Shown here one piece after another: positions 1,301 through 18,727 of a DNA stretch of 25,357 bases. Origin of the DNA: a virus; the IMG/VR virus record IMGVR_UViG_3300042881_002013, positions 1-25,357 of that record; one strand, 5' to 3'. The notes under the pieces are model-generated. The model ran no database searches. It saw only the letters and a list, made by a program, of their open reading frames with translations, and had not been told where the DNA came from. A program made the translations under genes and the position numbers. Position 1 is the stretch's first letter, and every line of letters starts with the position of its first letter.

Positions 1301-1927
1301 ATGTATAAACTTCTTGAAAAAAATTGTGTATATTGTAATATAACATTTTTAGGTTCAAAACATAGAAAATACTGTGGATATAAATGTTCTAAAAATGCTA
1401 GAAAAAAAAGAGTTAATTTAATTTGTCAAAGTTGTAATAAAGAATTTGAAGTTCAAGAGTGGTCTAAAAATTCTAAGTATTGTAGTAAAAAATGCAAAGT
1501 TAAAAGTCAGTCTTCTGACATAATTAATATAACTTGTGATTATTGTAATAATCAATTTAAAAGAAAAGAATTTAGAACAAAAATGGGAAAACATAATTTC
1601 TGTTCTAAAGATTGTTCTAATAAATTTAATACAGGAAGTAATCATTATGAATGGAAAGAATATTTACATGACAAAAATATAAAACTTGCACTTAAACAAT
1701 GGAGTTTAAAAATTAAAGAAAGAGATTGTTATACATGTCAGTTATGTGGAGAAACAAATAAAAATATTTTAGAATCACATCATATGAAACATAGAAGTAC
1801 ATTTCCCGAATTACAATTTGATTTTAATAATGGAATAACTCTTTGTTTAAGTTGTCATGCATTACAACATGTAAATGATCCTAAAGCTTTAAGATTAATA
1901 AACCATAAAATTGCTAAAAACAGATAA
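1301..1927 (+). CDS. HNH endonuclease with N-terminal zinc-finger repeats (homing type)
   Basis: 208 residues. The C-terminal third carries an HNH nuclease signature: C146-x2-C149, H160-H161, NNGITLCLSCH (N176/N177, C182, C185, H186) and H190, i.e. a zinc-stabilised beta-beta-alpha-metal fold that cuts DNA. Before it are three Cys repeats of the form CxxC...CxxxC (around residues 9-29, 42-65, 79-105), likely zinc-binding DNA-recognition modules. It is inserted with 2-3 base gaps between small Gly-Gly genes and has no obvious virion role, which is typical of free-standing phage homing endonucleases. The nuclease assignment is secure; the mobile (homing) role is inferred from context. Confidence 0.88.
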   Translation: MYKLLEKNCVYCNITFLGSKHRKYCGYKCSKNARKKRVNLICQSCNKEFEVQEWSKNSKYCSKKCKVKSQSSDIINITCDYCNNQFKRKEFRTKMGKHNFCSKDCSNKFNTGSNHYEWKEYLHDKNIKLALKQWSLKIKERDCYTCQLCGETNKNILESHHMKHRSTFPELQFDFNNGITLCLSCHALQHVNDPKALRLINHKIAKNR

Positions 1928-2236: not shown

Positions 2237-2935
2237 ATGCTTAATAGTGCTATTACCATAAAAATAAAACAACGGATCAATAAGCTTGATAGTCAAGACT
2301 ATGATAACTTAGAGTGTTGGCAAATTGTTGAAGCATTTAACAAAGCACAAGTTGAATGGACTAGAAGACAATTACATGGTAGCAATCAAGTAAGAGAAGG
2401 TGATGAACAGTCAACCCGCAGAAAAGATGATTTACAAGCTTTATTAATTACAAATACATTAACTACTGCAGATAAAGAATATTATTATAAAGGAAATATT
2501 CCTCAAGATTATTTGCAGTGGAAAAGAGTAGATGTCTTTGCACAAAAAGATTGTTGTGATAAAAGACGTATGACAGTGTATTTAGCAGAAGAAGGAAACC
2601 TTAATCAACTTCTCAGAGATAAATCTAAACAACCTAGTTTTGAATGGGCAGAAACATTTGCTACTTTAAAAAACGGAGAAGTAAATGTATATACTAATGG
2701 AGAGTTTGATATAGAAAAAATTGAACTTACTTATTATAGACAACCTGTAAAAATTCAAATAGAAGGCTGTGTAGATCCTTATACTAATACTGCTTCTCCA
2801 ACAAATGTAGAATGTGAATTTAAAGATGATATAATAGAAGTAATAATAGATGAGGCTGTAAGTATTCTAGCCGGAGACATAGAGTCTGGAAACCAATTCT
2901 CTAGAGGAACAGATACAGCTGAACGTAACAACTAA
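2237..2935 (+). CDS. Probable head-tail adaptor / connector ring protein
   Basis: 232 residues. The N-terminal helical part (INKLDSQDYDNLECWQIVEA, FNKAQVEWTRRQL) is followed by a mixed beta region and a helical C-terminus with KDDIIEVIIDEAVSILAGD and ending ESGNQFSRGTDTAERNN. An N-terminal helical bundle with a conserved NKAQ..W.R element and a terminal helix with a polar Gln/Asn-rich tail is the layout I associate with adaptor or ring proteins of Bacteroidota phages. It lies just upstream of the Dps-like gene and the abundant structural protein. A role below the portal is inferred; sequence alone does not prove it. Confidence 0.5.
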   Translation: MLNSAITIKIKQRINKLDSQDYDNLECWQIVEAFNKAQVEWTRRQLHGSNQVREGDEQSTRRKDDLQALLITNTLTTADKEYYYKGNIPQDYLQWKRVDVFAQKDCCDKRRMTVYLAEEGNLNQLLRDKSKQPSFEWAETFATLKNGEVNVYTNGEFDIEKIELTYYRQPVKIQIEGCVDPYTNTASPTNVECEFKDDIIEVIIDEAVSILAGDIESGNQFSRGTDTAERNN

Positions 2936-2940
2936 TAAAA

Positions 2941-3393
2941 ATGGAAAAACCTAGATTATTAAAAAGAGATGCTGCATCTTCTGCATCATACTCAAAAGTT
3001 CCAGCAGGAGACTCTGTAGATACTATGACAGCTGCATGTGTATCAGAATTAATGTGTGCTGCTACTAGTTTTCATAAATTACATTTAAAAGTAACTGGTG
3101 CTGGATCATATGCAGCTCATAAAGCCCTTAATGAATTATATGATGCTCTTCCTGGACATGCTGATGATTTAGCAGAAGGATATCAAGGAGCTGCAGAAAA
3201 ATTGCTCAGCTATTCTGAAACATCTCCAAGAATATTAAATTCGGTAGATGATGCATTAGGATACATTAGAGAAATAGGAGAAATGGTAAATAAGCTACAA
3301 GCTAAAATGCCATATACTGAGATAGTAAATGACTTAGATACAATCAAGTCTACACTGAACTCAACTAAATACAAATTACTTTTCTTAAAATAA
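2941..3393 (+). CDS. Ferritin-like / Dps-like protein
   Basis: 150 residues, almost entirely helical in character. H48, H60, D75 and E79 reproduce the Dps ferroxidase pattern H-x11-H-x14-D-x3-E exactly, in the context SFHKLHLKVTGAGSYAAHKA and ALPGHADDLAEGYQGAAEK. In Dps these residues sit on helices A and B and bind iron at the dimer interface of a 12-subunit cage that protects DNA. The protein is slightly shorter than cellular Dps (about 160-180 residues). I recall a related phage family of unknown function (DUF5856), which this could belong to. It starts five bases after the upstream stop. Iron oxidation, DNA protection or a purely structural use of the four-helix bundle are all possible. 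Confidence 0.7.
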   Translation: MEKPRLLKRDAASSASYSKVPAGDSVDTMTAACVSELMCAATSFHKLHLKVTGAGSYAAHKALNELYDALPGHADDLAEGYQGAAEKLLSYSETSPRILNSVDDALGYIREIGEMVNKLQAKMPYTEIVNDLDTIKSTLNSTKYKLLFLK

Positions 3394-3422
3394 TTTGGAT
3401 ATTTAAAAAAAGTTTACTATAT

Positions 3423-3440
3423 TATAGTATATTTATTTAT
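3423..3440 (+). promoter_or_regulatory. TAGTATATT promoter-like motif upstream of the abundant structural gene
   Basis: The sequence TATAGTATATTTATTTAT lies in the 65-base gap before 3459. The core TAGTATATT (3425-3433) also occurs before the genes at 8061, 10946 and 20132. The ATG is 25 bases downstream of the core, leaving room for a short leader. Promoter function is inferred from recurrence and position. Confidence 0.5.
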
Positions 3441-3458
3441 TAACTAAAACAAAAAACA

Positions 3459-4748
3459 ATGGCTTATTTTAATCACGCATTCCAGAAAGTGTTTGTTGGA
3501 ACCGAAAATTTCAATACAAGCAAAACTGGAAAATTAGGTTCACCTGGAAATATTCTTTCCGGTGGAGAAATTGGATTTGTAGATCCAAAATCTTGGGACT
3601 TAGTTGCTGAAGCACCTACTAACTGCTGTCCTTTAGTACTTGCTGCAGGTTCAATTTATCAAAATGATAAAATTGGTCCTTTTCATGGAGGATACCAAGA
3701 GTCTAACAAATCTAAGGTAATCAACCCTAAGTATGTTAGTCAATTCTATCGTGTATTACCATGTCAACCACAAAATGAAGTGGTACATATTGGTAATACT
3801 GAATTTATAGGACAATTAGGATGTTGTAAAAAATACTTCTGTGGTGAGACTTACACATTACGTGTTGATATTAAAGGTTCTCCTGCATTAAGATTATTAG
3901 ACCACAACTCTTATATTATTGCTTCTGCATATGGTGGATGTTGTCCAGAAGGTTCAATTGCTCCAGTAGAAATTGATCCAACAATCATCTTTATTCAATG
4001 GGCTGAGGCAATTGTAAGATACCCTGTTATCTCTCCATTCTTGTCAGTAGCTGTTATTGACCAAGAGGGTACTCCTTGGTATGCTCCAGGAACTGATGCT
4101 GCTTTTTTAGCTCTATTTGAGGCTAATACTTGGGATAACTATGTATCTCCAGGATATGATGAAGAAAACTGTTTAGCAGGAATTCAATTAGTTGGTGCTT
4201 ATGTAGATACTAAATTTCAAAACTGTACATTCCAATTGACTGACTTCTATGAAGTTGAACCAGTTAGAATCTATGCTTCTGAAGTTGACCTTAACGGTGA
4301 TCCATGTTTATTTAATGGAACATGTGTTAACAAAATATGTGAAGGAAGACAAGCAATGGGTCTTGGAGAATCAGTTGCACGTGATGTAATTTTATCTGAG
4401 CAATACAGACAAAACTTCTTCCACAGTGACCTCCGTATCCGTGAAATCACTCAAGGAGCTAGTGTATTTAATTACATTGACCGTAATAGTTTGTATGTAA
4501 GATACTACATTTTACATAATGTTCCACGTTTCAATAATCCAACTAGTACATTTGATAATGACCAATACTTGTTAGAGATTATTACAAGTGAAAGTGTTGG
4601 TACTGATCTTCTAGAATTTGTTGAAGCATGGTTAGGAAATTGCAATTCAGGATGTGATTTAGAATTACAAACTGTAGGTTGTGGTCAGACATGTGATTCT
4701 GAAGATTATTATCCATACCCTGGTGGACCTATTGGACCATTAGTATAA
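3459..4748 (+). CDS. Abundant virion structural protein (major capsid or major tail protein, unresolved)
   Basis: 429 residues, with no enzyme motif or membrane segment. Recognisable stretches are GPFHGGYQESNKSKVINPKY, TYTLRVDIKGSPALRLLDHN and LRIREITQGASVFNYIDRN. Cysteines are frequent, including three CC pairs and a C-terminal GCDLELQTVGCGQTCDSE. Several signs point to very high expression: its own promoter-like motif upstream, a strong terminator downstream, and codon use unlike its neighbours (Arg often CGT rather than AGA; more TTC, TAC and AAC). This fits the major capsid protein or the major tail protein. Its place after an adaptor-type gene slightly favours a tail role, but a crAss-like podovirus would have no tail tube, so I leave it open. 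Confidence 0.6.
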   Translation: MAYFNHAFQKVFVGTENFNTSKTGKLGSPGNILSGGEIGFVDPKSWDLVAEAPTNCCPLVLAAGSIYQNDKIGPFHGGYQESNKSKVINPKYVSQFYRVLPCQPQNEVVHIGNTEFIGQLGCCKKYFCGETYTLRVDIKGSPALRLLDHNSYIIASAYGGCCPEGSIAPVEIDPTIIFIQWAEAIVRYPVISPFLSVAVIDQEGTPWYAPGTDAAFLALFEANTWDNYVSPGYDEENCLAGIQLVGAYVDTKFQNCTFQLTDFYEVEPVRIYASEVDLNGDPCLFNGTCVNKICEGRQAMGLGESVARDVILSEQYRQNFFHSDLRIREITQGASVFNYIDRNSLYVRYYILHNVPRFNNPTSTFDNDQYLLEIITSESVGTDLLEFVEAWLGNCNSGCDLELQTVGCGQTCDSEDYYPYPGGPIGPLV

Positions 4749-5379: not shown

Positions 5380-5586
5380 ATGTCTAAATGTGCAAATTGC
5401 GGAGCAGCTATAACTTGCGGATGTCAGAAAAGAACACTACCAGATGGTAAAAGCGGATGCAGTAGCTGTGTTAATAGAGTAAATAAAAAACCAGTAGTAG
5501 AAACAAAAAAACCAGAAACTCCAACTACTAAAAGAGTTTGGGGACCTGATAGATATAAAAACTTAGAAAAATTTACTAAAAAATAA
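5380..5586 (+). CDS. Small zinc-ribbon-like protein
   Basis: 68 residues. The N-terminal half has a zinc-ribbon-like cysteine arrangement: C4-x2-C7, C13, C15 and C27-x2-C30 (KCANCGAAITCGCQ, GKSGCSSCV). A Lys/Pro/Thr linker and a short helix (RVWGPDRYKNLEKFTKK) follow. Its stop codon overlaps the start of the next gene (TAATG). A similar Cys cluster begins the protein at 9861 (CKKCGCEDKF), which suggests a shared metal-binding element in the fibre region. Function unknown. Confidence 0.6.
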   Translation: MSKCANCGAAITCGCQKRTLPDGKSGCSSCVNRVNKKPVVETKKPETPTTKRVWGPDRYKNLEKFTKK

Positions 5587-8042
5587 TGCCAAGTACATTC
5601 TATACTCTTAATGATTGTTGTACTAATCAACCTGCTACCGTATTTCAGATTCTTGGTAACCCTAATTCTGCAATTTTATATTTAGAATATGAAGGGTCAG
5701 AGACTCCTTCTCCTAGTGACATTGGTAATAATATAATATCTGAATTATGTTCTGAAGCTCTTGGTCCTTCGGGGTGTTTATCTGTATGTGTTAGAGTTGT
5801 GCAAGTTTCAGAACCAATACCTTCTCCAGATGTATATATTGAAGACTGGTATAAAGTAATTTATCAGATTACTACTGTTCCAACATGTGCTGAATGTCAA
5901 GAATGTCCTCCAAAGTGTTATACTTTAACAGACTGTAATGATCCTGATAATATTATAAAAAGTAAGTCAGCATCATTAGCACAATATGCGTTTAACAATT
6001 CTATTGTAAAAATAAATGGGTATGATGAATGTTGGTCAATAACTTTTGAAACAGACCCTTGTGGAATACCTATTTGCGGTAAGAATTATGAAGGATATGG
6101 TTATTTGTATAACTGGTATGCACTATTTGGAGCTGGGGCTCAAACTAACGGTGGTAGAAATCCTGGAGGTATTGTAAATACAAATCAACCATATAGCGAT
6201 GACAGAAATGAATGGTTTGTTCCAGATGATGAAGATTGGTTAGATTTAAAAAATTATTTAGGTGGTAATGATATTGCTGGTGGAAAACTAAAAACTACTT
6301 GTACTGCTCCATTTACTGATAATAATGGACTTTGGGATTCACCAAATGAAGGAGCGACTAATGAAGTAAATTGGGCTGGTATTCCAGGTGGATTCCGTGA
6401 TACCAATGGATTGTTTTTAAACAGAGGTAGTTACGGTTTTTATTGGAGTGCTTATCAAACTAATACCAGTAATGGTGTAAGGTTTTACTTGGAATATGAT
6501 AGCAGTGATCTAAAAGTAGCTTCAAATAATAAAGATACTGGAGCCTCTATTAGGTTAGTAAGACGAGCAATAGATGATGAGTTGTTATTACCTGATGGAA
6601 CAACAAGTAATGATACTTCAGCTTTACCAGAGTATATAGGAAACTCAAGATCATATATCACTGTAAAAATTGGAAATCAAGTTTGGACAGCACAAAACTT
6701 AATTGAAACTCAATATAATAATGGAGCTTCAATTCCTCTAGTAACAAATGCTACAACATGGGCAGGATTGACAACAGGTGCTAGATGTTCTTATAATAAC
6801 GGAACCATAACACCGGATCAAGGTCAAATAGAACTTTGCGGAGATACTCCATCTCCTCCTCCACCACCTGCAGCAGCAGTTGCTGCTAAACTATTACTTA
6901 CAAGTTCAGAAGAAGAGTTTTGTCCATGTGAAATTCCGGTAACAGTAGTAGAGGCATTTGAAAATTGTCAAGACTGTTTACCTGTTATAGCATATAAATT
7001 CACTAATTGTGATAATAAGGGAATAGTAAAATATAGTACTGAAGACTTTTCAGAATATATAGGAAAAACAGTAAAGCTTAATTGTGGAAACTGTTGGTCT
7101 GTAACTCAAATAAATTATACTCCCCCATCTACTCAATCAATAACTGTTGAGTATGCATTCAATTCGTGCAGCACATGTAAAAAAACATACTATAAATTAA
7201 CTAGTTGTTCAGATCCTGAAGAAATACTTTACACATATTCAGATATAGATATACCTCCAAAACCTCCCATAGGATGTACTGATTGTGTTCACATTTCATT
7301 TACTTATAATGGGGTAGATTATGAGTATGAAGTTCCTGTTTTTAATAATCCAAATAATGATATTTCTTATTTTATATTCTCTATTAATTTTACTATAGAT
7401 ATAGTACTTAATGGAGGCATATGGAAATTAATTATAACTAGACGTTTAGATCCTACGGTCATAGAGTCAGATACTGAAGAAGCTGTTTATACTATTGAAA
7501 GTGAATTACCATGTCCATTTTTTGAAAATTGGATTTTTGATAGTGGTGAGCTTGAAGTAGAAAATTTAGTTACTGATGCATGTACTTTACCTGATCCTGT
7601 AATTAGTATTAAAGGTTTCTCAGGTTGTTTTAAAGTAGAAAAGACAAATCAACCTGTTAATCCAACTATAGTAAAACAATTAGAAAAGTATGATAGTTGT
7701 GAGGACTGTCCAGTTGCACCAGAACCAGAACCAGAACCGTTACCAAAAAGAAAAGTAAAACCTGGATACTCAACACCAGCATGTGATATAGAAAAGTATG
7801 AGAAGATAACATGTAAGTCATCTGAGATTTATTATAAACAAGTAATGAGGATTAGATATGGCATATCAAATTGTTGTCCTGATGAAGATGATAAATGGAT
7901 TATTAAGAAAGAACTTATTGATCTTGATGCATTAAGAGATCCTGAGTATGTATGTCAACCTGTAACAACTTGTTGCGGGCAAACAATAAATACATGTGGA
8001 TGCAATTGTAATCAAACACTTAAAACTTGTAATTCTCAATAA
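5586..8042 (+). CDS. Large cysteine-rich tail-fibre/adhesin protein with FISUMP-type domain
   Basis: 818 residues. A repeated module of the form YxLTxCxDPxxI ... CWSxT occurs near residues 5-50 (diverged), 111-150, 469-508 and 535 onward; for example CYTLTDCNDPDNII, YKFTNCDNKGIV and YYKLTSCSDPEEIL. Residues about 170-328 match the second half of the Fibrobacter major paralogous (FISUMP) domain: YGYLYNWYALFGAG, EWFVPDDEDWLDLKNYLGG, FYWSAY and IRLVRR. Residues about 352-410 match its first half (VKIGNQVWTAQNL, YNNGASIPLV, LTTGARCSYNNG), so the halves appear in reverse order. Pro-rich linkers (SPPPPPAAA, APEPEPEPLP) separate blocks, and the C-terminus is Cys-rich (CCGQT, CGCNCNQT). Extended, modular and next to a C-type-lectin-like fibre, it is probably a host-recognition or fibre-anchoring protein. 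Confidence 0.7.
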   Translation: MPSTFYTLNDCCTNQPATVFQILGNPNSAILYLEYEGSETPSPSDIGNNIISELCSEALGPSGCLSVCVRVVQVSEPIPSPDVYIEDWYKVIYQITTVPTCAECQECPPKCYTLTDCNDPDNIIKSKSASLAQYAFNNSIVKINGYDECWSITFETDPCGIPICGKNYEGYGYLYNWYALFGAGAQTNGGRNPGGIVNTNQPYSDDRNEWFVPDDEDWLDLKNYLGGNDIAGGKLKTTCTAPFTDNNGLWDSPNEGATNEVNWAGIPGGFRDTNGLFLNRGSYGFYWSAYQTNTSNGVRFYLEYDSSDLKVASNNKDTGASIRLVRRAIDDELLLPDGTTSNDTSALPEYIGNSRSYITVKIGNQVWTAQNLIETQYNNGASIPLVTNATTWAGLTTGARCSYNNGTITPDQGQIELCGDTPSPPPPPAAAVAAKLLLTSSEEEFCPCEIPVTVVEAFENCQDCLPVIAYKFTNCDNKGIVKYSTEDFSEYIGKTVKLNCGNCWSVTQINYTPPSTQSITVEYAFNSCSTCKKTYYKLTSCSDPEEILYTYSDIDIPPKPPIGCTDCVHISFTYNGVDYEYEVPVFNNPNNDISYFIFSINFTIDIVLNGGIWKLIITRRLDPTVIESDTEEAVYTIESELPCPFFENWIFDSGELEVENLVTDACTLPDPVISIKGFSGCFKVEKTNQPVNPTIVKQLEKYDSCEDCPVAPEPEPEPLPKRKVKPGYSTPACDIEKYEKITCKSSEIYYKQVMRIRYGISNCCPDEDDKWIIKKELIDLDALRDPEYVCQPVTTCCGQTINTCGCNCNQTLKTCNSQ

Positions 8043-8060: not shown

Positions 8061-9857
8061 ATGAAACCTTTAAACTTAGATAATAAACCTTGTAGCCCAA
8101 TATCAAGTAATTGTGTGATATGGCAAGGTCCCAATCTAGATTGTATCAAGTTATGTACAGGAGATACAGTATCTAATGTTGTAGCTACTTTGGCTACAGA
8201 ACTTTGTACAATATTAGATGAGTTAAAAGTAAGCAACTATGATTTATCTGCTTTTGGGCTATCATCTTCATCATTAAATTTTGAAGAACTAGTTCAGTTT
8301 CTTATTGATAAAGTATCTGAGCTTAATGATATTAACTCAGGTAATGGGGGATCAGGATCAGGATCAGGATCTGAATGTCCTGATTGTGTAGTATCTGTAG
8401 CTCCATGTTTGATTACAGGTGGTCAAACTACCATGCAATTACTTGATTATGTTCAAATGATTGCAAATAGAATATGTACTATAATAAGTAGCACACAAGA
8501 TATAGATCAGGAAATAACTATTATTAATTCTACACTATCGGATTTACAATTTCAAATAGATAACTTACCAGGCTATACATTACCTAATATTCCAGTAGAC
8601 TGTATATTATCAGGAAATCAAAGAATTGATGTAGTTCTTAATGCATTAATGAATGATGATACATTGGGTTATTGTCGTTTATTAAGTGCAACTGGTACTC
8701 CTATAAATATTAATACTGCTGTATTATCACAATGTATTTCAGATACAGCTCAACCATTAGCAGCATTACCGGCAGTAAATACATTTAGTGCATATTATTC
8801 AAGTTCATGGGTTAACGCATCAGCATTGAATGCAGCACCAACTGTATCAAACGCAATTAAAAATATTTGGGTAGCTATTTGTGATATTTATAATTATTCA
8901 TCTGATTTTCCTGTAACTGTTGTAGCACAAGGTAGTGGAATTACAGTTACACCAACTACTGTTGGAAATGTTACAACATATACTGTTGCAAGTTCAGGTT
9001 CAGGATCTGGAGTTACATTATCTGATGCTGGTACTACTATACATGAATCATTAGTAAATACTGGAACTGGTCCAGCTCTAGCTACTAAAGGATTAAAAGC
9101 TGGTTCTAACATTTCATTATCTTCAACTGCTACTGATATTACTATTACAAATACAGCACCTAATGTTGCTCAAAATCTCTGGGCAACTATTACTGCTACA
9201 ACGGGTAGTACAACTGCAAACTCAACTACAGATACATTATCAGTAGTTGGAGCTGGAGGTATTACTACTTCTATTGCAGGAGATACACTAACTATTACAG
9301 GATCAGGAGGCGGTGGTGGTGGTTCATTTACTTATGAAATAGGACAACATGTTTCATCTAGAGGAGGAGTTATTGCTCATAGATGGTTATCAACAACATC
9401 TCTTGGAACTCCAACATCCGGAACTGTTGAGAATTACTTAGTTGTAGATACTCAAGATAGACCTTCTGCTACTTGGGGATTAGATACTACAAATGTTCCA
9501 AACTGTGAAAGTACCTGGGACGGACAAGCAAATACAACAGCGATGATGACAGCTGGTGCAGCAGTAGGCACAGCTGCTCAATTATGTGACTCTAGTACCA
9601 ATAATGGTTTTACTGATTGGTATCTTCCTGCTATTGATGAGCTGTCTAAAATATTTCATAATAGATGGGAAATTGCACAAGGACTAATAGCTGCAAGTGG
9701 GACCCAATTTGATACTACGGCCTACTATTGGAGTAGTACTGAGTACGTCCCCACCGGCGCGTGGAGCTTCTACTTCAACTTTGGGACTGTCTACAGCACC
9801 GGCGGTAAGACCAACCCATATCATGTGCGTGCAGTAAGAAGATTTTCAATACCATAA
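8061..9857 (+). CDS. Tail fibre / receptor-binding protein with DGR-type variable C-terminus
   Basis: 598 residues. The N-terminal module (about 1-96; CSPISSNCVIWQGPNLDCI) resembles that of the next gene and probably anchors the fibre. A Gly-Ser linker (97-104) leads to a helical segment (DIDQEITIINSTLSDLQFQI) and then beta repeats typical of trimeric phage fibres (GITVTPTTVGNVTTYTV, GITTSIAGDTLTITG). A poly-Gly linker at about 414-421 precedes the C-terminal domain, residues 422-598. This has GFTDWYLPAIDEL (516-528), YYWSSTEY (555-562) and VRAVRRF (589-595), i.e. a DUF1566/C-type-lectin-like fold as found in DGR target proteins. Codons 561-585 are GC-rich and full of NNC codons, unlike the rest of the gene. 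The likely role is host-receptor binding at the fibre tip, with tropism diversified by a DGR encoded elsewhere. Confidence 0.8.
   Translation: MKPLNLDNKPCSPISSNCVIWQGPNLDCIKLCTGDTVSNVVATLATELCTILDELKVSNYDLSAFGLSSSSLNFEELVQFLIDKVSELNDINSGNGGSGSGSGSECPDCVVSVAPCLITGGQTTMQLLDYVQMIANRICTIISSTQDIDQEITIINSTLSDLQFQIDNLPGYTLPNIPVDCILSGNQRIDVVLNALMNDDTLGYCRLLSATGTPININTAVLSQCISDTAQPLAALPAVNTFSAYYSSSWVNASALNAAPTVSNAIKNIWVAICDIYNYSSDFPVTVVAQGSGITVTPTTVGNVTTYTVASSGSGSGVTLSDAGTTIHESLVNTGTGPALATKGLKAGSNISLSSTATDITITNTAPNVAQNLWATITATTGSTTANSTTDTLSVVGAGGITTSIAGDTLTITGSGGGGGGSFTYEIGQHVSSRGGVIAHRWLSTTSLGTPTSGTVENYLVVDTQDRPSATWGLDTTNVPNCESTWDGQANTTAMMTAGAAVGTAAQLCDSSTNNGFTDWYLPAIDELSKIFHNRWEIAQGLIAASGTQFDTTAYYWSSTEYVPTGAWSFYFNFGTVYSTGGKTNPYHVRAVRRFSIP
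8349..8372 (+). repeat. GGATCA tandem repeat encoding a Gly-Ser linker
   Basis: Three copies of GGATCA followed by GGATCT encode residues 97-104 (GSGSGSGS) of the variable fibre. It separates the N-terminal anchoring module from the shaft. A similar Gly-Ser stretch recurs near 8996-9010 and a poly-Gly linker near 9300-9326. Confidence 0.85.
9720..9842 (+). other. Putative DGR variable region (VR) in the fibre C-terminus
   Basis: From 9741 to 9815, 44 of 75 bases are G or C (59%), against about 30% around it, and 17 of 25 codons end in C (TAC, GTC, CCC, ACC, GGC, AGC, TTC and so on). This is what adenine-specific mutagenesis of a template rich in AAC codons produces: the first two bases vary and the third stays C. 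Fixed positions such as YYWSS, A-W (567-568), K583 and VRAVRRF flank the variable residues, as in known DGR targets with C-type-lectin folds. The template repeat and reverse transcriptase are not in the window. Exact VR borders cannot be set without the template. Confidence 0.75.
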
Positions 9858-9860
9858 AAA

Positions 9861-10814
9861 ATGGCAACAACAAATAATAAATGTAAAAAATGTGGATGTG
9901 AGGATAAGTTTATGACTAGTCCTGCACCATGCCCTACACCTGAAGGGTGTCCGGATCCAGTATCTTGTTCAGAGACAATAGATGCTAACTGTGTTTTATA
10001 TACAGGAGAACCGCTTCAATGTAATGGTGAAATTATATTGGATACAGGAACATCCTTAAATGAGGCTATTGTAAATCTAATTGAATACATACAAAATATT
10101 AATCATGTTGTATGTGGTACAGCTTGTGAAAATGCATATGATTATATGACAGGATATGCACTTTCTAATGCAACTGAAGAACTTCCTCCACAAGCTGTAT
10201 TGGATCTATTACTACTTAAAGGTTTAATATTACCATCAGAAAACAATAGTATTTGCTGCCCGGTTTGTGGACCTTATGTATTAGCCTCTGTTGAGACATA
10301 TCTAAAGTTTGCTGAAGCAGTAGGTAGAACACAATCTGTAGATCCTGAAAACCAATGTGAGTCAAGTTTAAATAATGACTGTTGTACAAATGTTTTTGCA
10401 AGTGTAGAAACATATTTAAAATATGCAGAAGCTGTAGGATGTGCACAGAGTCCTCCAACAAATAACTGTGAAGGTTGTAATAATGGTTTTACAGAAGAAC
10501 TTCAAACATTAATAGACTCAGATTCTGATCCTAATTTTGAAGATAGACTACTTGATAAAGGAGTAGTTGAGTCAGGTAGTTTAAATATTGATCTGACATC
10601 AAATATCTCTAATTTACAAGCTTTAGTATATGCAATGTTTGATGCTCAAGAAGGAACCAATATTGAAACAGTTCCGGAAATTGTAGATAGAATACTTGAT
10701 AGAGGAATTGTATTAAGTTGTGTTAAAGGACAGTTAGTTTTGTCTTCTGTAGAAGCTTGGTTAAAGTACGCAGAAGCAGTTGGTCTTACATGTGCTGCTG
10801 CTGTTCCAGCATAA
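9861..10814 (+). CDS. Cysteine-rich fibre-associated protein with three SVExxLKYAEAVG repeats
   Basis: 317 residues. It opens with a compact Cys cluster (CKKCGCEDKF) and a Cys/Pro segment (CPTPEGCPDPVSC), then a module SETIDANCVLYTGEPLQCNG like the N-terminus of the preceding fibre (NCVIWQG...LDC). Three copies of a 15-residue repeat follow at 141-155 (LASVETYLKFAEAVG), 179-193 (FASVETYLKYAEAVG) and 294-308 (LSSVEAWLKYAEAVG). Between them are paired helical elements (NGFTEELQTLIDSDSDPNFE, VPEIVDRILDRGIV). It starts three bases after the variable fibre and ends before a terminator. The shared N-terminal module suggests it assembles at the same site as the fibre, perhaps as a chaperone, adaptor or second short fibre. 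Function unproven. Confidence 0.62.
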   Translation: MATTNNKCKKCGCEDKFMTSPAPCPTPEGCPDPVSCSETIDANCVLYTGEPLQCNGEIILDTGTSLNEAIVNLIEYIQNINHVVCGTACENAYDYMTGYALSNATEELPPQAVLDLLLLKGLILPSENNSICCPVCGPYVLASVETYLKFAEAVGRTQSVDPENQCESSLNNDCCTNVFASVETYLKYAEAVGCAQSPPTNNCEGCNNGFTEELQTLIDSDSDPNFEDRLLDKGVVESGSLNIDLTSNISNLQALVYAMFDAQEGTNIETVPEIVDRILDRGIVLSCVKGQLVLSSVEAWLKYAEAVGLTCAAAVPA

Positions 10815-13228: not shown

Positions 13229-16200
13229 ATGGCAAAAGATATTCAAAGTACAACTACAGTTATAAGTAAAGGTTTTACAAAGGGTCTTAATAAAGATTCT
13301 GATCCATCTTTTGTTCAAGATGGTATGTGGACACATGCACGTAATGCTATAAACAATACAGAAGAAGGTAACTTAGGTACATTATCAAATGAAGATGCAA
13401 ACTTTTTATGTATTACTGCTGGATCAACTATGCCAGCTACTGCATTAAAAAAATATATTATAGGTGCTATTCAATTATTTTCTGATAAGTGGATTATCTT
13501 TACAGCAGGACATAAGCTTAATGGTCTTTCAGTATCTTCTGAGATTGGATTATTTGAAGCAGATGTATGTTTGTATAAACCTATAGTACAAGATCCTTGT
13601 TTAAATTTTGATAAAAGATATCTTATCTCAGGGTCATCTAGAGAAAAAGAAGATTGTACTTGGCAAGTATATTGGGCTGATGGTAATAATCCTGATAGAT
13701 ATTTAAACATCGGAGATCCACAAACTTGGCCTAAACCTCCATATGTATGGTTAGGTCAATCAAATATTAATTATTACTCAGATGGTATTAATGAACTCTT
13801 GTGGCCAGGAGTTGCTTGGAATGAAGATGAAAGTATAGTCAATGATTGTATATTTATAGATTATCTACCTTCTTTAGACTGTAATAAAATAAGACTTGCA
13901 AGATTAATGAAAACACCATCTCTTAAAGTTACTTTAGGTAATCAAGGTGGAACTTTAAGAAATGGAACTTACTTTGCAACTTTAGCATATAGTATTAAAG
14001 GTCAAATAGTTTCAAACTATTTTTCTCCAAGTAATACACAACCTATTTGGTTTCCAAATGATTTACAAGGTTCACTTATTATTGATATAGAAGCTGATAG
14101 TGAAAACTTTGATGAATTTATTTTGGTAATAGTACAGAATATAAATCAAGGAACTGTTGCAAAACAAATTGGAACATATTCTACTAAAACTACTAGAGTT
14201 GCATTAGATCAAATAAAAGAAGACTTAATATCAGTACCATTAAATTTTTTACAATTACAAAATCCTGTATTTGAAAAGTCAGATCAAATAACTGAAGTAA
14301 ATAACTATTTACTGCGTATAGGTCCTACATCTAAATTTGATTTTAATTATCAACCTTTAGCAAATCTTATTAAAACCAAATGGGCTTCTGTTGAATACTC
14401 ATCAGACTATTATGTAAAAGGTGGTAATAAAGGAAGTTATCTAAGAGATGAAGTATATTGTTTCTTTATCCGTTGGGTGTATGATACGGGAGATAAATCT
14501 TCTTCATATCATATTCCTGGAAGAGCTCCAAGAAATTATCCTGATGGTAGTGCTACATTTGAAAACTCAACAGATACTAGTGCAAATGCATTAACATCTA
14601 ATGATAAAATATTTGAAACATTTAATACCGGAGTTGTTACATCATATACAAATACTACATTAGATGATGGAGGTGTAGTAATTGGAACAGGTGATATGGG
14701 ATATTGGGAATCAACTGAAAAATATCCTGATGATAGACCTGATATATACAATGCAAGTTTTCATTGTTGGACAGGTAAATACCAACAGAGTGATTTGAGT
14801 TGGGACTTATGTGGAAAACCAATTAGGCATCATAAGTTTCCAGATAACATGTCAGATACAAGTAGTCAAAGTGTTACAAATCATTTTAAACCAAACCCTT
14901 CTCAAAATCCTAATCCACTTAGGATAAGGTTAATGGGAGTATTCTTTGAAAATATTTTATATCCAAAAGATAATGAAGGTAATGACATACCTGGAATAGT
15001 TGGGTATGAAATATTAAGAGGTTCTAGAGAAGGTAATAAATCTATTATTGCAAAAGGTATGTTAAATAATTTTAGGACATACCAACTAAAAGGTCAGATA
15101 GTAAATAATGCAAGTCCCGTTACAGGTATTTATGCTAATTATCCTTTTAACACTATTAATGGATTTTATAATCAAGGTTCCGGAAGTGATCATGATAGAC
15201 CTTTTATGGATCCGTATATTAAAATTGTTGATCCAACTAATAGTTCAAATGTATTAGATCAAAAAGTTCCTATTGATGTAGTTAGTTTTCATTCTCCGGA
15301 TACCATGTTTAATACTCCGTTTCTTTCAAATACAGAGTTAAAACTATATGGGTACTTTAGAGGTAAATCAACTCAACAATTTATAGAACCTAATAAACAT
15401 CCTCAACATAAGTTACTAAGTGATTTTTGTGTTATAGTATTTTCAATTGCTGGACTTATAGAAGCTATAACATCTATGAGAGGTAGAATTACTATCAATT
15501 CAGCAACTGCAAATGGTGGAGCTTTTGTTAGTGGACCTGTAAGTGGAGATGGTGCATTTGCTGCTCAGATTATAGCTGGTACTACTTTAGCAACAGCAAC
15601 TAGTACATATAATATAGCATTAGAAACTTATTTTGCAAACGGACTTACTGTAATTGCAGATACTTTTTCAATGGCATTTGCAGGAGTAACACCATTTTTT
15701 ACAGCTATACAGACAGCTTATGACTCTGCAGTTAATATAGCAGCTGTTACAGGTGCAGTAGCTCCACGAGCAACTGAGTATACATACACACTACCTGACT
15801 GGGCATACTTAGATCCTGTAAATAGAGTATTAGGTGCACTAAATCAATTAGCATTTTATTTTAGCGAAGGTGCAAGAGCTGCCTTAGCTATCATAAGAGC
15901 ATTAATACCATATGATCAAGTTGCATTACAAATGATTGCACACGGTTTCTATGATGATATGAAAAGAAACAATGCTGCCAATGGTTTATTTAGATTTAAA
16001 GCAGAAGATAGTTTTTATATAAGAGGTAATATTCAACAAATGCCTGTATATACAGATTATAACGGATCTCAAATAAGTTATAGTATTAACAATTTAAACA
16101 GATCTGATGCAGTTGTTATTAGGACAAAGGCCGGACCAAACTATGGAGGTCCATATGTTAATGGATCAATCGGTCCTGATTATATTACTGAACCTACTGG

Positions 16201-18727
16201 GGTTGGATATGTTGATCAATCATTAACAACTATCGGTAGAATTCAACAAAATGGTAAGGTTAATCCATATAATTTATCTGTAAGTCCAGCTAATCAAAAT
16301 CTTGATCCAAGTTTTACTGAAACTGATAGACCTTTTAATGCTCCAATAGCTAGTCATTATGCAGGTGTTAAAGTAAGAATTAGAAATCAATATGGACAGT
16401 TACAAGGAATAAAACAAATTGTAATTACACCATCTGAACAGAAAATTGACTATGCAAGTTTACCAGATTCAGTTAATGGTGATACAGAATGTAATGCATG
16501 TAATACTAATAAAAAACTTAAAGTTATTTCAAAAACAAATGTTTTCTTTGGAGGAGATACGTTTGTAAATAGATATACAGAAAAGAATACAATGTTCTTT
16601 TTCTATGATTGGTTATTTGGTCAGCCAGATGGTTTTGAATATAATTATTTGTTAAAACAAATGATACCGCAACCAAGGTTTTGGTTAAACAGTCAAGATT
16701 ATGATGTTTCTGATCTTACACCTGACTTTTCATCATCATCATCAACACCTGGTACAGGAAACATGCCAACTGATTTTTACAATTTAGATTACTTTAATAA
16801 AAGAAATTTATTACCAGATCAATATTGGAGTTATTCATCAGATAATCCTGTAAATGGTTATCCTGGATTATTTAGAGCTAAAAATGCTAAATTTTACTTA
16901 GCATGTTCATCAGTAAGAGATTTCTTTGTAGAATCAGAAGTACTTGTTGATTTTAGAATAGCAGGTGATTATGAATGGGAAAAACATTATAACCCATATA
17001 ACTATACTGATTTATTTAGAATGTTTGATATTGATCCTCAAAATATAACTAGAGGTAACTGGTATAGATATGATTATTCACTTAGTATAACTAAATTGTA
17101 TAATCAATATTTTTCATCTGGAGCATTACAAAGCACATATTATAATCCACTAGTATCTAAACTTTGTTATACTTATCTTCCAGATAGAATATATTATTCA
17201 TTACAACAACAAGATGAGTCATTCAAAGATAGTTGGTTTATATTTCTTCCTAATAACTATAGAGAGTTTAAGTCACAAATTTCAGGGGTTAAGTCTATAA
17301 ACAAATCAGGTATATTTATTACTTTCAAAAATGATAGTCCTCAAATGTTCCAAGGTGTTGATACACTTAATACAGATCTTGGTACTAAGATTACTATAGG
17401 TGACGGAGGTTTATTTAGTCAACCAGGACAAGCAGTAACAAATGCTGATAAACCATATGAGTATGGTTCTTCTCAGTCTAGACTTGCTGTTATATCAACT
17501 CCTGCAGGATTATTCTTTGCATCACAAAACCAAGGTAAAATATTTAGTTACTCTGGAGGATTAAAAGAAATTTCTCAAGTAGGTATGAAATGGTGGTTTG
17601 CATTATTTTTAAAATATAAGTTAACACAACATTTTCCAAATTATGAATGGCAAGATAATCCTATAGCTGGTATTGGTATTCAATCAGTATATGATAATGA
17701 AAACTCTATATTATATTTCTGTAAAAAAGATTATGACTTAAGACCGGAGCTAGAAGGAAGAGTTAAATATATTCCTTTGGTGAAAGAATGTTATATAGAT
17801 TCAAATGGTGTTGCTATTCAAAAAGGTACAGGAGATTATTTTACATTAGATAATTCAGGATCATATATGATTGGTGATCCAAAATTATTTATCTCTGCTT
17901 CATGGACAATAAGTTATGACCCTAAAAATGAGTTTTGGATTAGCTTTCATGATTGGCATCCTGATTTAGTTATACCTGCAAAAACAGTATTCTTTACAAC
18001 TAAAGAAAATACAGTATGGAAACATAACTTTACTTGTAAACAATACTGTAATTACTATGGAGTTGATTATCCTTTTGAGATTGAGTTTCCAGTATCAACA
18101 GGTCAATCAGTAACTACATTAAAATCTATTGATTATATACTTGAGTCATATGTAACAGCTGATAATTGTATTGATGATTTTCATGTATTAGATCATAATT
18201 TTGATAATGCTGTAATATATAATTCAGAACAGGTTTCAGGCTATCTTAACTTAAATATATTTCCTAAGAATAATATTTCTTTAAGTTTACAATATCCTAA
18301 GTTTAATCAGAATATTCCAATGATTTTCACAAATCCAGTAAATGGTCAAGCTGAATTTATAAATACACCTGGATTTGATATATTATTTTCTAAAGAAGAA
18401 AACAAATACAGATTTAATCAGTTTTGGGATATTACTAAAGATAGAGGAGAGTTTCCTATTGGGGCGGGTTATCCTCCACAAGGTCCATTAGTTCCAAATA
18501 CAACAAAATTATTTGGAACATATCCACAACAAACAATATGGAATACAAATCCTGACGGATACACTAGACAATTAAATTTTGATAATATTGATTTTGCTAA
18601 ACCTTTATTACAAAGAAAAAAGTTTAGACATTATTTGAATTTTGTTGCTTTAAGAAAAGAAGTATCAGGAAATGTAAATATGATAGTTAAAAATGTAAAT
18701 AGTAAAAACCAATTGTCCCCTAGGTAA
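13229..18727 (+). CDS. Giant tail nozzle protein, muzzle / P22 gp10-like
   Basis: 1832 residues, the largest gene in the window. The N-terminus, FTKGLNKDSDPSFVQDGMW then THARNAINNTEEGNLGTLSN, is the signature I associate with phage tail 'stabilization' or P22 gp10-like proteins, which form the muzzle in crAss-like phages. Most of the chain looks beta-rich with many Tyr/Asn/Asp residues. Residues about 732-845 differ: Ala/Gly/Thr-rich and hydrophobic (FCVIVFSIAGLIEAITSM, FAAQIIAGTTLATATSTY), likely helices that could line or plug the channel or meet the membrane. A short Ser run (SSSSSTPGTG) is near residue 1170. It follows two ring-type genes and its stop overlaps the lysozyme gene. It probably forms the DNA exit tube of the short tail. 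Confidence 0.72.
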   Translation: MAKDIQSTTTVISKGFTKGLNKDSDPSFVQDGMWTHARNAINNTEEGNLGTLSNEDANFLCITAGSTMPATALKKYIIGAIQLFSDKWIIFTAGHKLNGLSVSSEIGLFEADVCLYKPIVQDPCLNFDKRYLISGSSREKEDCTWQVYWADGNNPDRYLNIGDPQTWPKPPYVWLGQSNINYYSDGINELLWPGVAWNEDESIVNDCIFIDYLPSLDCNKIRLARLMKTPSLKVTLGNQGGTLRNGTYFATLAYSIKGQIVSNYFSPSNTQPIWFPNDLQGSLIIDIEADSENFDEFILVIVQNINQGTVAKQIGTYSTKTTRVALDQIKEDLISVPLNFLQLQNPVFEKSDQITEVNNYLLRIGPTSKFDFNYQPLANLIKTKWASVEYSSDYYVKGGNKGSYLRDEVYCFFIRWVYDTGDKSSSYHIPGRAPRNYPDGSATFENSTDTSANALTSNDKIFETFNTGVVTSYTNTTLDDGGVVIGTGDMGYWESTEKYPDDRPDIYNASFHCWTGKYQQSDLSWDLCGKPIRHHKFPDNMSDTSSQSVTNHFKPNPSQNPNPLRIRLMGVFFENILYPKDNEGNDIPGIVGYEILRGSREGNKSIIAKGMLNNFRTYQLKGQIVNNASPVTGIYANYPFNTINGFYNQGSGSDHDRPFMDPYIKIVDPTNSSNVLDQKVPIDVVSFHSPDTMFNTPFLSNTELKLYGYFRGKSTQQFIEPNKHPQHKLLSDFCVIVFSIAGLIEAITSMRGRITINSATANGGAFVSGPVSGDGAFAAQIIAGTTLATATSTYNIALETYFANGLTVIADTFSMAFAGVTPFFTAIQTAYDSAVNIAAVTGAVAPRATEYTYTLPDWAYLDPVNRVLGALNQLAFYFSEGARAALAIIRALIPYDQVALQMIAHGFYDDMKRNNAANGLFRFKAEDSFYIRGNIQQMPVYTDYNGSQISYSINNLNRSDAVVIRTKAGPNYGGPYVNGSIGPDYITEPTGVGYVDQSLTTIGRIQQNGKVNPYNLSVSPANQNLDPSFTETDRPFNAPIASHYAGVKVRIRNQYGQLQGIKQIVITPSEQKIDYASLPDSVNGDTECNACNTNKKLKVISKTNVFFGGDTFVNRYTEKNTMFFFYDWLFGQPDGFEYNYLLKQMIPQPRFWLNSQDYDVSDLTPDFSSSSSTPGTGNMPTDFYNLDYFNKRNLLPDQYWSYSSDNPVNGYPGLFRAKNAKFYLACSSVRDFFVESEVLVDFRIAGDYEWEKHYNPYNYTDLFRMFDIDPQNITRGNWYRYDYSLSITKLYNQYFSSGALQSTYYNPLVSKLCYTYLPDRIYYSLQQQDESFKDSWFIFLPNNYREFKSQISGVKSINKSGIFITFKNDSPQMFQGVDTLNTDLGTKITIGDGGLFSQPGQAVTNADKPYEYGSSQSRLAVISTPAGLFFASQNQGKIFSYSGGLKEISQVGMKWWFALFLKYKLTQHFPNYEWQDNPIAGIGIQSVYDNENSILYFCKKDYDLRPELEGRVKYIPLVKECYIDSNGVAIQKGTGDYFTLDNSGSYMIGDPKLFISASWTISYDPKNEFWISFHDWHPDLVIPAKTVFFTTKENTVWKHNFTCKQYCNYYGVDYPFEIEFPVSTGQSVTTLKSIDYILESYVTADNCIDDFHVLDHNFDNAVIYNSEQVSGYLNLNIFPKNNISLSLQYPKFNQNIPMIFTNPVNGQAEFINTPGFDILFSKEENKYRFNQFWDITKDRGEFPIGAGYPPQGPLVPNTTKLFGTYPQQTIWNTNPDGYTRQLNFDNIDFAKPLLQRKKFRHYLNFVALRKEVSGNVNMIVKNVNSKNQLSPR

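What the first reader, a model, noticed from the sequence alone, without database searches (positions are those of the whole stretch)
9720..9842. DGR-type hypervariable region in a phage fibre, with no reverse transcriptase in view
The last 45 codons of the fibre gene switch abruptly from AT-rich phage codon use to a GC-rich, NNC-dominated stretch (44/75 G+C; 17/25 codons ending in C at 9741-9815). It sits between conserved YYWSS and VRAVRRF. This is the footprint left by adenine mutagenesis of an AAC-rich template in a C-type-lectin-like DGR target. The phage would diversify its receptor-binding tip from a template and reverse transcriptase located outside this window, or from a host or co-resident element in trans.
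Basis: partly seen in the sequence, partly recalled or inferred. Interest (0 to 1): 0.87.

Follow-up and report, generated by a model that had tools for sequence, protein, structure and literature searches.

The report
Phage fibre tip rewritten by host retroelement
The end of this lake-type crAss-like phage fibre gene is a mutagenised copy of a template that was found only in bacterial chromosomes, never in viral contigs, so such phages appear to vary their binding proteins with a mutation machine that belongs to their bacterial hosts.

Summary
At 9741-9815, 17 of 25 codons end in C, against 6% over the window. The stretch is a diversity-generating-retroelement (DGR) variable repeat (VR), 9729-9835, in an Lcl_C tip domain of a crAss-like phage fibre.
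An actual template was found. A chromosomal DGR in a Chitinophagaceae MAG (L095: target, Avd, TR, RT) has a TR that matches the window VR at 57 of 62 non-adenine sites but only 22 of 42 adenine sites. Across 19 distinct phage VRs with this backbone, mismatches are 202/437 at TR adenines and 16/760 elsewhere; nine VRs have none elsewhere.
Template and enzyme are missing from the phages. No such TR was found in 2.9 million viral contigs, and no RT in any VR-bearing viral contig, including one of 296 kb. Two sibling contigs (L162, L164) differ at 0.8% of sites outside the VR but at 20/42 TR-adenine and 1/62 other VR sites.
Best reading: a host DGR writes these phage VRs in trans. In the window phage itself the VR may now be idle (identical assemblies, five non-adenine changes, no hairpin). 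An RT elsewhere in its unseen genome is not excluded.

The parts
8061..9857 (+). fibre gene, 598 aa; its first ~300 aa are shared with 115-117 kb crAss-like relatives, its C-terminal tip is not
   Evidence: ORF; tblastn of the fibre into G003/G004/G020/G029 matches only aa 1-309 plus short pieces
9513..9839 (+). Lcl_C (PF07603, formerly DUF1566) tip domain, the same domain as the bacterial DGR targets
   Evidence: Pfam E 1.9e-13; bacterial targets in L095, L115, L096, L097 are also PF07603; alignment A1
9729..9835 (+). variable repeat (VR): mutagenised copy of a TGGAGTAGTACGGAG...TATGTGCGTGCGGT template; one codon longer than the L095 TR
9741..9815 (+).
   Evidence: 17/25 NNC, 44/75 G+C; binomial P 1e-15
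9822..9835 (+). IMH-like 3' end of the VR (CATGTGCGTGCAGT; L095 TR has TATGTGCGTGCGGT, two mismatches)
   Evidence: direct comparison

Best explanation
The last ~107 nt of the fibre's tip domain are a DGR variable repeat whose template, reverse transcriptase and Avd are not encoded by the phage but by a chromosomal DGR of its Bacteroidota host. During infection the host DGR would make adenine-mutagenised cDNA from its TR. That cDNA would replace the homologous VR in the incoming phage genome, as it does in the host's own Lcl_C proteins, so the phage gets new receptor-binding variants without carrying the machinery. Shown: the VR/TR relationship with adenine specificity; lack of TR and RT on the VR-bearing viral contigs searched; complete DGRs with this kind of TR on bacterial chromosomes; VR turnover confined to template adenines between near-identical RT-less contigs of a sister lineage. 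Inferred: that retrohoming in trans, rather than recombination with a host VR, does the writing; that the host of this phage carries such a DGR; that the varied residues bind a receptor; that the window's own VR is still a live target.
For: (1) Template: the L095 TR lies beside a bAvd/DivGenRetAVD-like protein and an RVT_1 protein. Against it the window VR mismatches 20/42 adenines and 5/62 other sites; phage VRs L093 and L111 mismatch 20 and 15 of 42 and 0/62. (2) Pooled: 19 distinct phage VRs, 202/437 versus 16/760; using only sites left free by the search pattern, 202/380 versus 16/380, p 3e-56. The effect holds within codon positions 1-2 (122/269 versus 4/193) and shows at position 3 where the TR has A. 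(3) The match is at DNA level: the window shares only this ~54-126 bp block with L085, L087, L088 and L093. (4) No TR: exact TR pattern 0 hits in all viral contigs; a looser one hit only one more VR type and two unrelated sequences; adenine-tolerant scans of VR-bearing contigs (296, 120, 79, 69, 60, 47, 39.5 kb and smaller) found none, while the same scan found the L095 TR. (5) No RT in those contigs nor in crAss-like relatives of 106-122 kb, except distant G036. (6) Turnover: L162 vs L164 differ at 37/4789 sites outside the VR, 20/42 TR-adenine sites, 1/62 others. (7) Precedent: an RT/TR/avd-deleted BPP-1 phage switches tropism when the DGR is supplied in trans by a plasmid in the host (PMC3240598).
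Against: The window record is a fragment (about 29 kb with G001), and no VR-bearing contig is proven complete. Phage VRs lack the hairpin expected after the VR (mean rank 0.49 against random positions), whereas three bacterial VRs share CCGCGAAGCGG; the hairpin matters for efficiency (PMC3240598, PMC12875486). The window VR has five non-adenine differences and a codon insertion relative to L095, so its true template is a variant or the copy is drifting. Several near-identical contig pairs have identical VRs, so rewriting is not frequent. Only two TR-bearing bacterial genomes were found, the L095 contig is 4.5 kb, and three of the four MAGs with this VR backbone show no matching TR. No host assignment was made.
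Confidence: 0.62

Rival explanations
1. Ordinary DGR in cis: the phage carries its own TR and RT elsewhere in its ~85-90 kb of unseen genome, as crAssphage LMMB and zeta crAss-like phages do.
For: The record is an incomplete linear fragment. Crassvirales DGRs exist in cis (PMC7290462, PMC12386605). One distant relative, G036, has an RT (L077), though no AAC-rich repeat was seen in the 3.6 kb around it.
Against: Cis DGRs normally sit beside the target; here 13 kb upstream (with G001) and 15 kb downstream hold none. No TR of this type in any viral contig against 29 VR-bearing contigs. No RT in VR-bearing contigs up to 296 kb or in relatives of 106-122 kb.
Confidence: 0.15
2. Recombination capture: the host DGR diversifies only the host's own VRs, and phages pick up finished host VR cassettes by homologous recombination across the conserved block ends.
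For: The same backbone is found as VRs in four Bacteroidota MAGs. Phage VRs lack the retrohoming hairpin. Tip domains are swapped between phages (L111 and L075 share 516 bp at 73%).
Against: No phage VR here equals a bacterial VR, though few bacterial VRs are known. The L162/L164 exchange ends close to the VR borders with 99% identical flanks on both sides.
Confidence: 0.15
3. Fossil: the window's VR was written long ago and is now a fixed, slowly drifting receptor-binding tip. This overlaps with the best explanation, which concerns where the VR came from.
For: Two assemblies have identical VRs; five non-adenine differences, mostly towards A/T, and IMH mismatches; no hairpin. Many crAssphage genomes of genus I have a VR but no TR (80 with VRs, 30 with TRs; PMC7290462).
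Against: Sibling lineages show recent turnover. The two assemblies are nearly the same strain (5 differences in 16 kb), so they would not reveal slow diversification.
Confidence: 0.35
4. No mutagenesis: GC-rich coding bias or convergent Lcl_C protein sequence.
For: WSSTE...VRAVR is a common Lcl_C motif.
Against: Identity is at DNA level, at synonymous sites, in phages of 30-34% G+C; variation follows template adenines, including at third positions.
Confidence: 0.01

Closest known systems
BPP-1 phage DGR with avd/TR/brt supplied in trans (BPP-1 delta-ATR plus donor plasmid; PMC3240598)
   Same: An RT-less phage VR is diversified at template adenines by a DGR resident in the infected cell; the target is a receptor-binding protein
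   Different: That is a laboratory construct; here the arrangement appears natural, in several phage lineages, with the host chromosome as source; phage targets here lack the hairpin
crAssphage LMMB and other Crassvirales DGRs (PMC7290462, PMC12386605)
   Same: Crassvirales fibre with a C-terminal VR; many relatives have a VR but no RT or TR
   Different: Those cassettes are TG-VR-TR-RT in cis, and RT-less members were read as degraded cassettes; here no TR or RT was found on any VR-bearing contig, and the matching TR is bacterial
Chromosomal Bacteroidota DGRs of L095 and L115 (target with Lcl_C, bAvd, TR, RT)
   Same: Same domain; L095 has the same VR/TR backbone at DNA level
   Different: Bacterial targets, hairpin after the VR, RT and Avd in cis
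Remote-target DGRs of bacteria (VR far from RT; noted as undetected in the survey PMC8144416)
   Same: VR separated from TR/RT
   Different: Here VR and TR/RT lie in different organisms' genomes

Membership tests
DGR target gene / variable repeat | VR at the 3' end of an ORF, in a C-type-lectin-like domain | tested here: met
   Last 43 codons of the fibre; Lcl_C PF07603. The fold itself was not confirmed: AlphaFold model pLDDT 46
DGR target gene / variable repeat | A TR whose differences from the VR fall at TR adenines | tested here: met
   Against the bacterial L095 TR: 20/42 A versus 5/62 non-A for the window; 202/437 versus 16/760 over 19 phage VRs. The TR is not in the phage's own record
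DGR target gene / variable repeat | IMH element at the VR 3' end | tested here: inconclusive
   14-nt TATGTGCGTGCGGT shared by TR and most VRs; window copy has two mismatches
DGR target gene / variable repeat | Hairpin/cruciform just after the VR | tested here: not met
   Window: best stem 4 bp, no better than random; phage VRs overall at random rank
DGR target gene / variable repeat | Population variation confined to template-A sites | tested here: inconclusive
   Met in sister lineage L162/L164/L093; window and G001 identical
Complete phage-encoded (cis) DGR | RT and TR in the same genome | tested here: not met
   None in the window, G001 or other VR-bearing contigs; the genome is incomplete, so the test covers only what is held
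Crassvirales | crAss-like muzzle protein | tested here: met
   ORF 13229-18727 matches PF25731 crAss_MUZ, E 1.7e-29
Host DGR acting in trans on a phage | Host of this phage carries the matching TR and RT | not testable with these tools
   No host assignment; matching DGRs found in two Bacteroidota MAGs only

The most novel reading that the evidence does not exclude
Several unrelated lineages of Bacteroidota phages (crAss-like and larger ones) carry RT-less VR 'landing pads' and exploit their hosts' chromosomal DGRs to diversify receptor-binding and other proteins in trans: a shared, host-borne mutagenesis service used by viruses.
Probability: 0.55. Interest if true: 0.9.

Novelty: new variant of a known kind. 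Interest (0 to 1): 0.77.

Why it matters
DGR surveys start from a reverse transcriptase and search its neighbourhood, so a phage that borrows a host DGR is invisible to them (the authors of PMC8144416 state that remote targets are missed). If right, phages gain targeted hypermutation of binding proteins without carrying the machinery, host DGRs have a cost as well as a benefit, and phage host-range evolution depends on which hosts a phage has passed through. It is directly testable with reads, closed genomes and a two-plasmid retrohoming assay.

Tried and rejected
Relatives by protein in annotated phage records: one weak hit only; the TR as DNA in phage and plasmid records: none. AlphaFold model of the tip: pLDDT 46, not used; PDB sequence hits 8q4e and 4eps not interpreted. 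Weak tblastn hits of the RT in G883 and G889 were inspected and set aside as chance: the ORF has no RT match and reads like a glycosyltransferase by eye. L112 and L113 matched the loose TR pattern but are unrelated. Near-identical contig pairs L085/L086, L111/L114 and L075/L090 say little about turnover, as their VR surroundings are identical. Broad sampling of Bacteroidota for the TR found one extra genome, G658. The first patterns required GAGTAC and so could not match the L095 TR (GAGAAC); this was corrected. RVT_1 searches of the other MAGs found DGR-like loci with different templates or RTs of unclear type.

Full report
WHAT IS THERE. The window is a whole virus record of 25,357 bases, a linear fragment. 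ORF 13229-18727 is a crAss-like muzzle protein (PF25731, E 1.7e-29), so this is a crAss-like phage. The fibre ORF 8061-9857 ends in an Lcl_C domain (PF07603, aa 485-593). A second assembly, G001, is 99.97% identical over 16,106 bp and has the same VR.

THE SHARED BLOCK. A pattern that fixes the backbone and leaves the first two bases of the variable codons free hit ten viral contigs; a broader one hit 29. Apart from L075/L090 (a crAss-like relative) and L111/L114 (which share part of the tip domain), the first-found contigs L085, L087, L088 and L093 share no DNA similarity with the window except this block of 54-126 bp. Genes holding the block differ: fibre C-termini (window, L075), separate Lcl_C proteins of 204-217 aa (L085, L111), and small proteins of 81-116 aa (L088, L093). 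Phage hallmarks were confirmed for several: terminase, DNA polymerase and ribonucleotide reductase in G069; terminase and portal in G066; terminase and portal in the 296 kb contig G889. L093, L162 and L164 are one lineage; L093 and L162 carry helicase or primase genes. Relatives of the L093 helicase (60% identity) include L211 and L212, which lie on the same contigs as the muzzle relatives L022 and L023, so this lineage appears to be crAss-like too.

THE TEMPLATE. A scan of genome contigs found the same backbone in four Bacteroidota MAGs. One of them, L095 (Chitinophagaceae), has a whole DGR: Lcl_C target 799-1764 with VR, Avd 1823-2167 (bAvd over Pfam's cut-off; below NCBIfam's cut-off for DivGenRetAVD), TR at 2289, RT 2458-3726. 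Its own VR differs from its TR at 20 sites, all TR adenines. A second DGR of the same make-up, with different synonymous codons, lies beside housekeeping genes such as groEL in a genome drawn from the order of L097's MAG (G658, L115). Against the L095 TR, phage VRs L093 and L111 match at all 62 non-adenine sites while differing at 20 and 15 of 42 adenines; the window differs at 20/42 and 5/62. Over 19 distinct phage VRs (63-nt part without indels) the counts are 202/437 and 16/760. Because the search pattern itself fixed some sites, the fair comparison is on free sites only: 202/380 versus 16/380, p 3e-56. Codon position does not explain it: within positions 1-2, 122/269 versus 4/193, and third positions vary more where the TR has A (3/6 versus 11/219, small numbers). 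The tests treat sites and sequences as independent, which is only approximate.

NO TEMPLATE OR ENZYME IN THE PHAGES. The TR core pattern has no hit in 2.9 million viral contigs; a looser one gave only L111/L114, which is a VR, and two unrelated sequences. RVT_1 searches found no RT in the VR-bearing viral contigs nor in crAss-like relatives of 106-122 kb, with one exception, the distant G036. Adenine-tolerant scans for a TR and tblastn with the L095/L115 RT and Avd found nothing credible in VR-bearing contigs of 296, 120, 79, 69, 60, 47 and 39.5 kb and smaller, while the positive control found the L095 TR at once. One relative without the VR, G029 (114,922 bp), has terminal repeats, suggesting a complete genome, and no RT. 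None of the VR-bearing contigs is proven complete.

TURNOVER. The strongest single observation is the pair L162/L164: 37 differences in 4,789 aligned sites outside the VR, but 20 of 42 TR-adenine sites differ inside it and 1 of 62 others. L093 against L164 gives 186/4774, 19/42 and 0/62. More distant pairs (L085/L163, L093/L167) show the same contrast. So in contigs without an RT the VR has been rewritten recently at template adenines. Other close pairs (L153/L158 at 2.6% divergence, L111/L114 at 0.5%) have identical VRs, so this is occasional.

MECHANISM. Retrohoming in trans is established in the laboratory: a BPP-1 phage lacking avd, TR and RT switches tropism when a host plasmid supplies them (PMC3240598), and the BPP-1 DGR works between plasmids in E. 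coli, with the hairpin helpful but not strictly required (PMC12875486). The natural counterpart would be a host chromosomal DGR rewriting a phage VR during infection. The alternative of recombination with finished host VRs cannot be excluded; it too needs the host DGR. Against direct retrohoming, phage VRs have no hairpin above chance, while three bacterial VRs share CCGCGAAGCGG. Summed over both routes, I put about 0.75-0.8 on an off-genome DGR as the author of this VR.

THE WINDOW ITSELF. Five non-adenine differences from L095, four of them towards A or T, one extra codon, two mismatches in the IMH-like end, no hairpin and two identical assemblies suggest that this copy is either served by a variant template or is drifting after older activity. 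Its nearest full-length relatives share the first ~300 residues of the fibre but not this tip, so the tip looks like an exchanged module.

LITERATURE. Crassvirales DGRs in cis are known. In one genus, 80 genomes had VRs but only 30 had TRs, read as cassette decay, and the authors left open whether the DGRs came from the host (PMC7290462). The global survey states that it cannot see remote targets (PMC8144416). In the searches made here no paper was found that reports natural host-encoded DGRs diversifying phage genes; the library is partial.

Noticed in passing
window 5586-8042 (+): A second protein of the same cluster carries a Fib_succ_major (PF09603) domain ending in YWSA...IRLVRR, a domain type also seen in a DGR template (L101), but without NNC bias (4/40).
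   Followed up: partly
window 9861-10814 (+): The protein after the fibre has three imperfect repeats of the type ASVETYLKYAEAVG in a cysteine-rich setting.
   Followed up: no
window 1301-1927 (+): HNH endonuclease ORF (PF01844) between small genes, perhaps a homing endonuclease.
   Followed up: no
L088 about 8540 and 8879; L180 about 6482: A second VR-like backbone (TGGAGTTCTACGGAG...GCGTGG..CAG..TTC) occurs 340 bp from the first in phage G069 and alone in L180: a possible second template family used by RT-less phages.
   Followed up: no
L093, L162, L164 (VR in a small protein near helicase/primase genes): In this lineage the diversified protein lies near replication genes, not in a tail fibre, so the target may not be a receptor-binding protein.
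   Followed up: partly
L094, L096, L097: Three MAGs carry chromosomal VRs of this backbone without a matching TR in the assembly; L097's MAG has another DGR with a Fib_succ-like TR (L101), L094's MAG one with a different kind of template (L103).
   Followed up: partly
L077 (G036, 129 kb crAss-like relative, 126608-127174): The only RT found among the crAss-like relatives; no AAC-rich repeat seen within the 3.6 kb held around it.
   Followed up: partly
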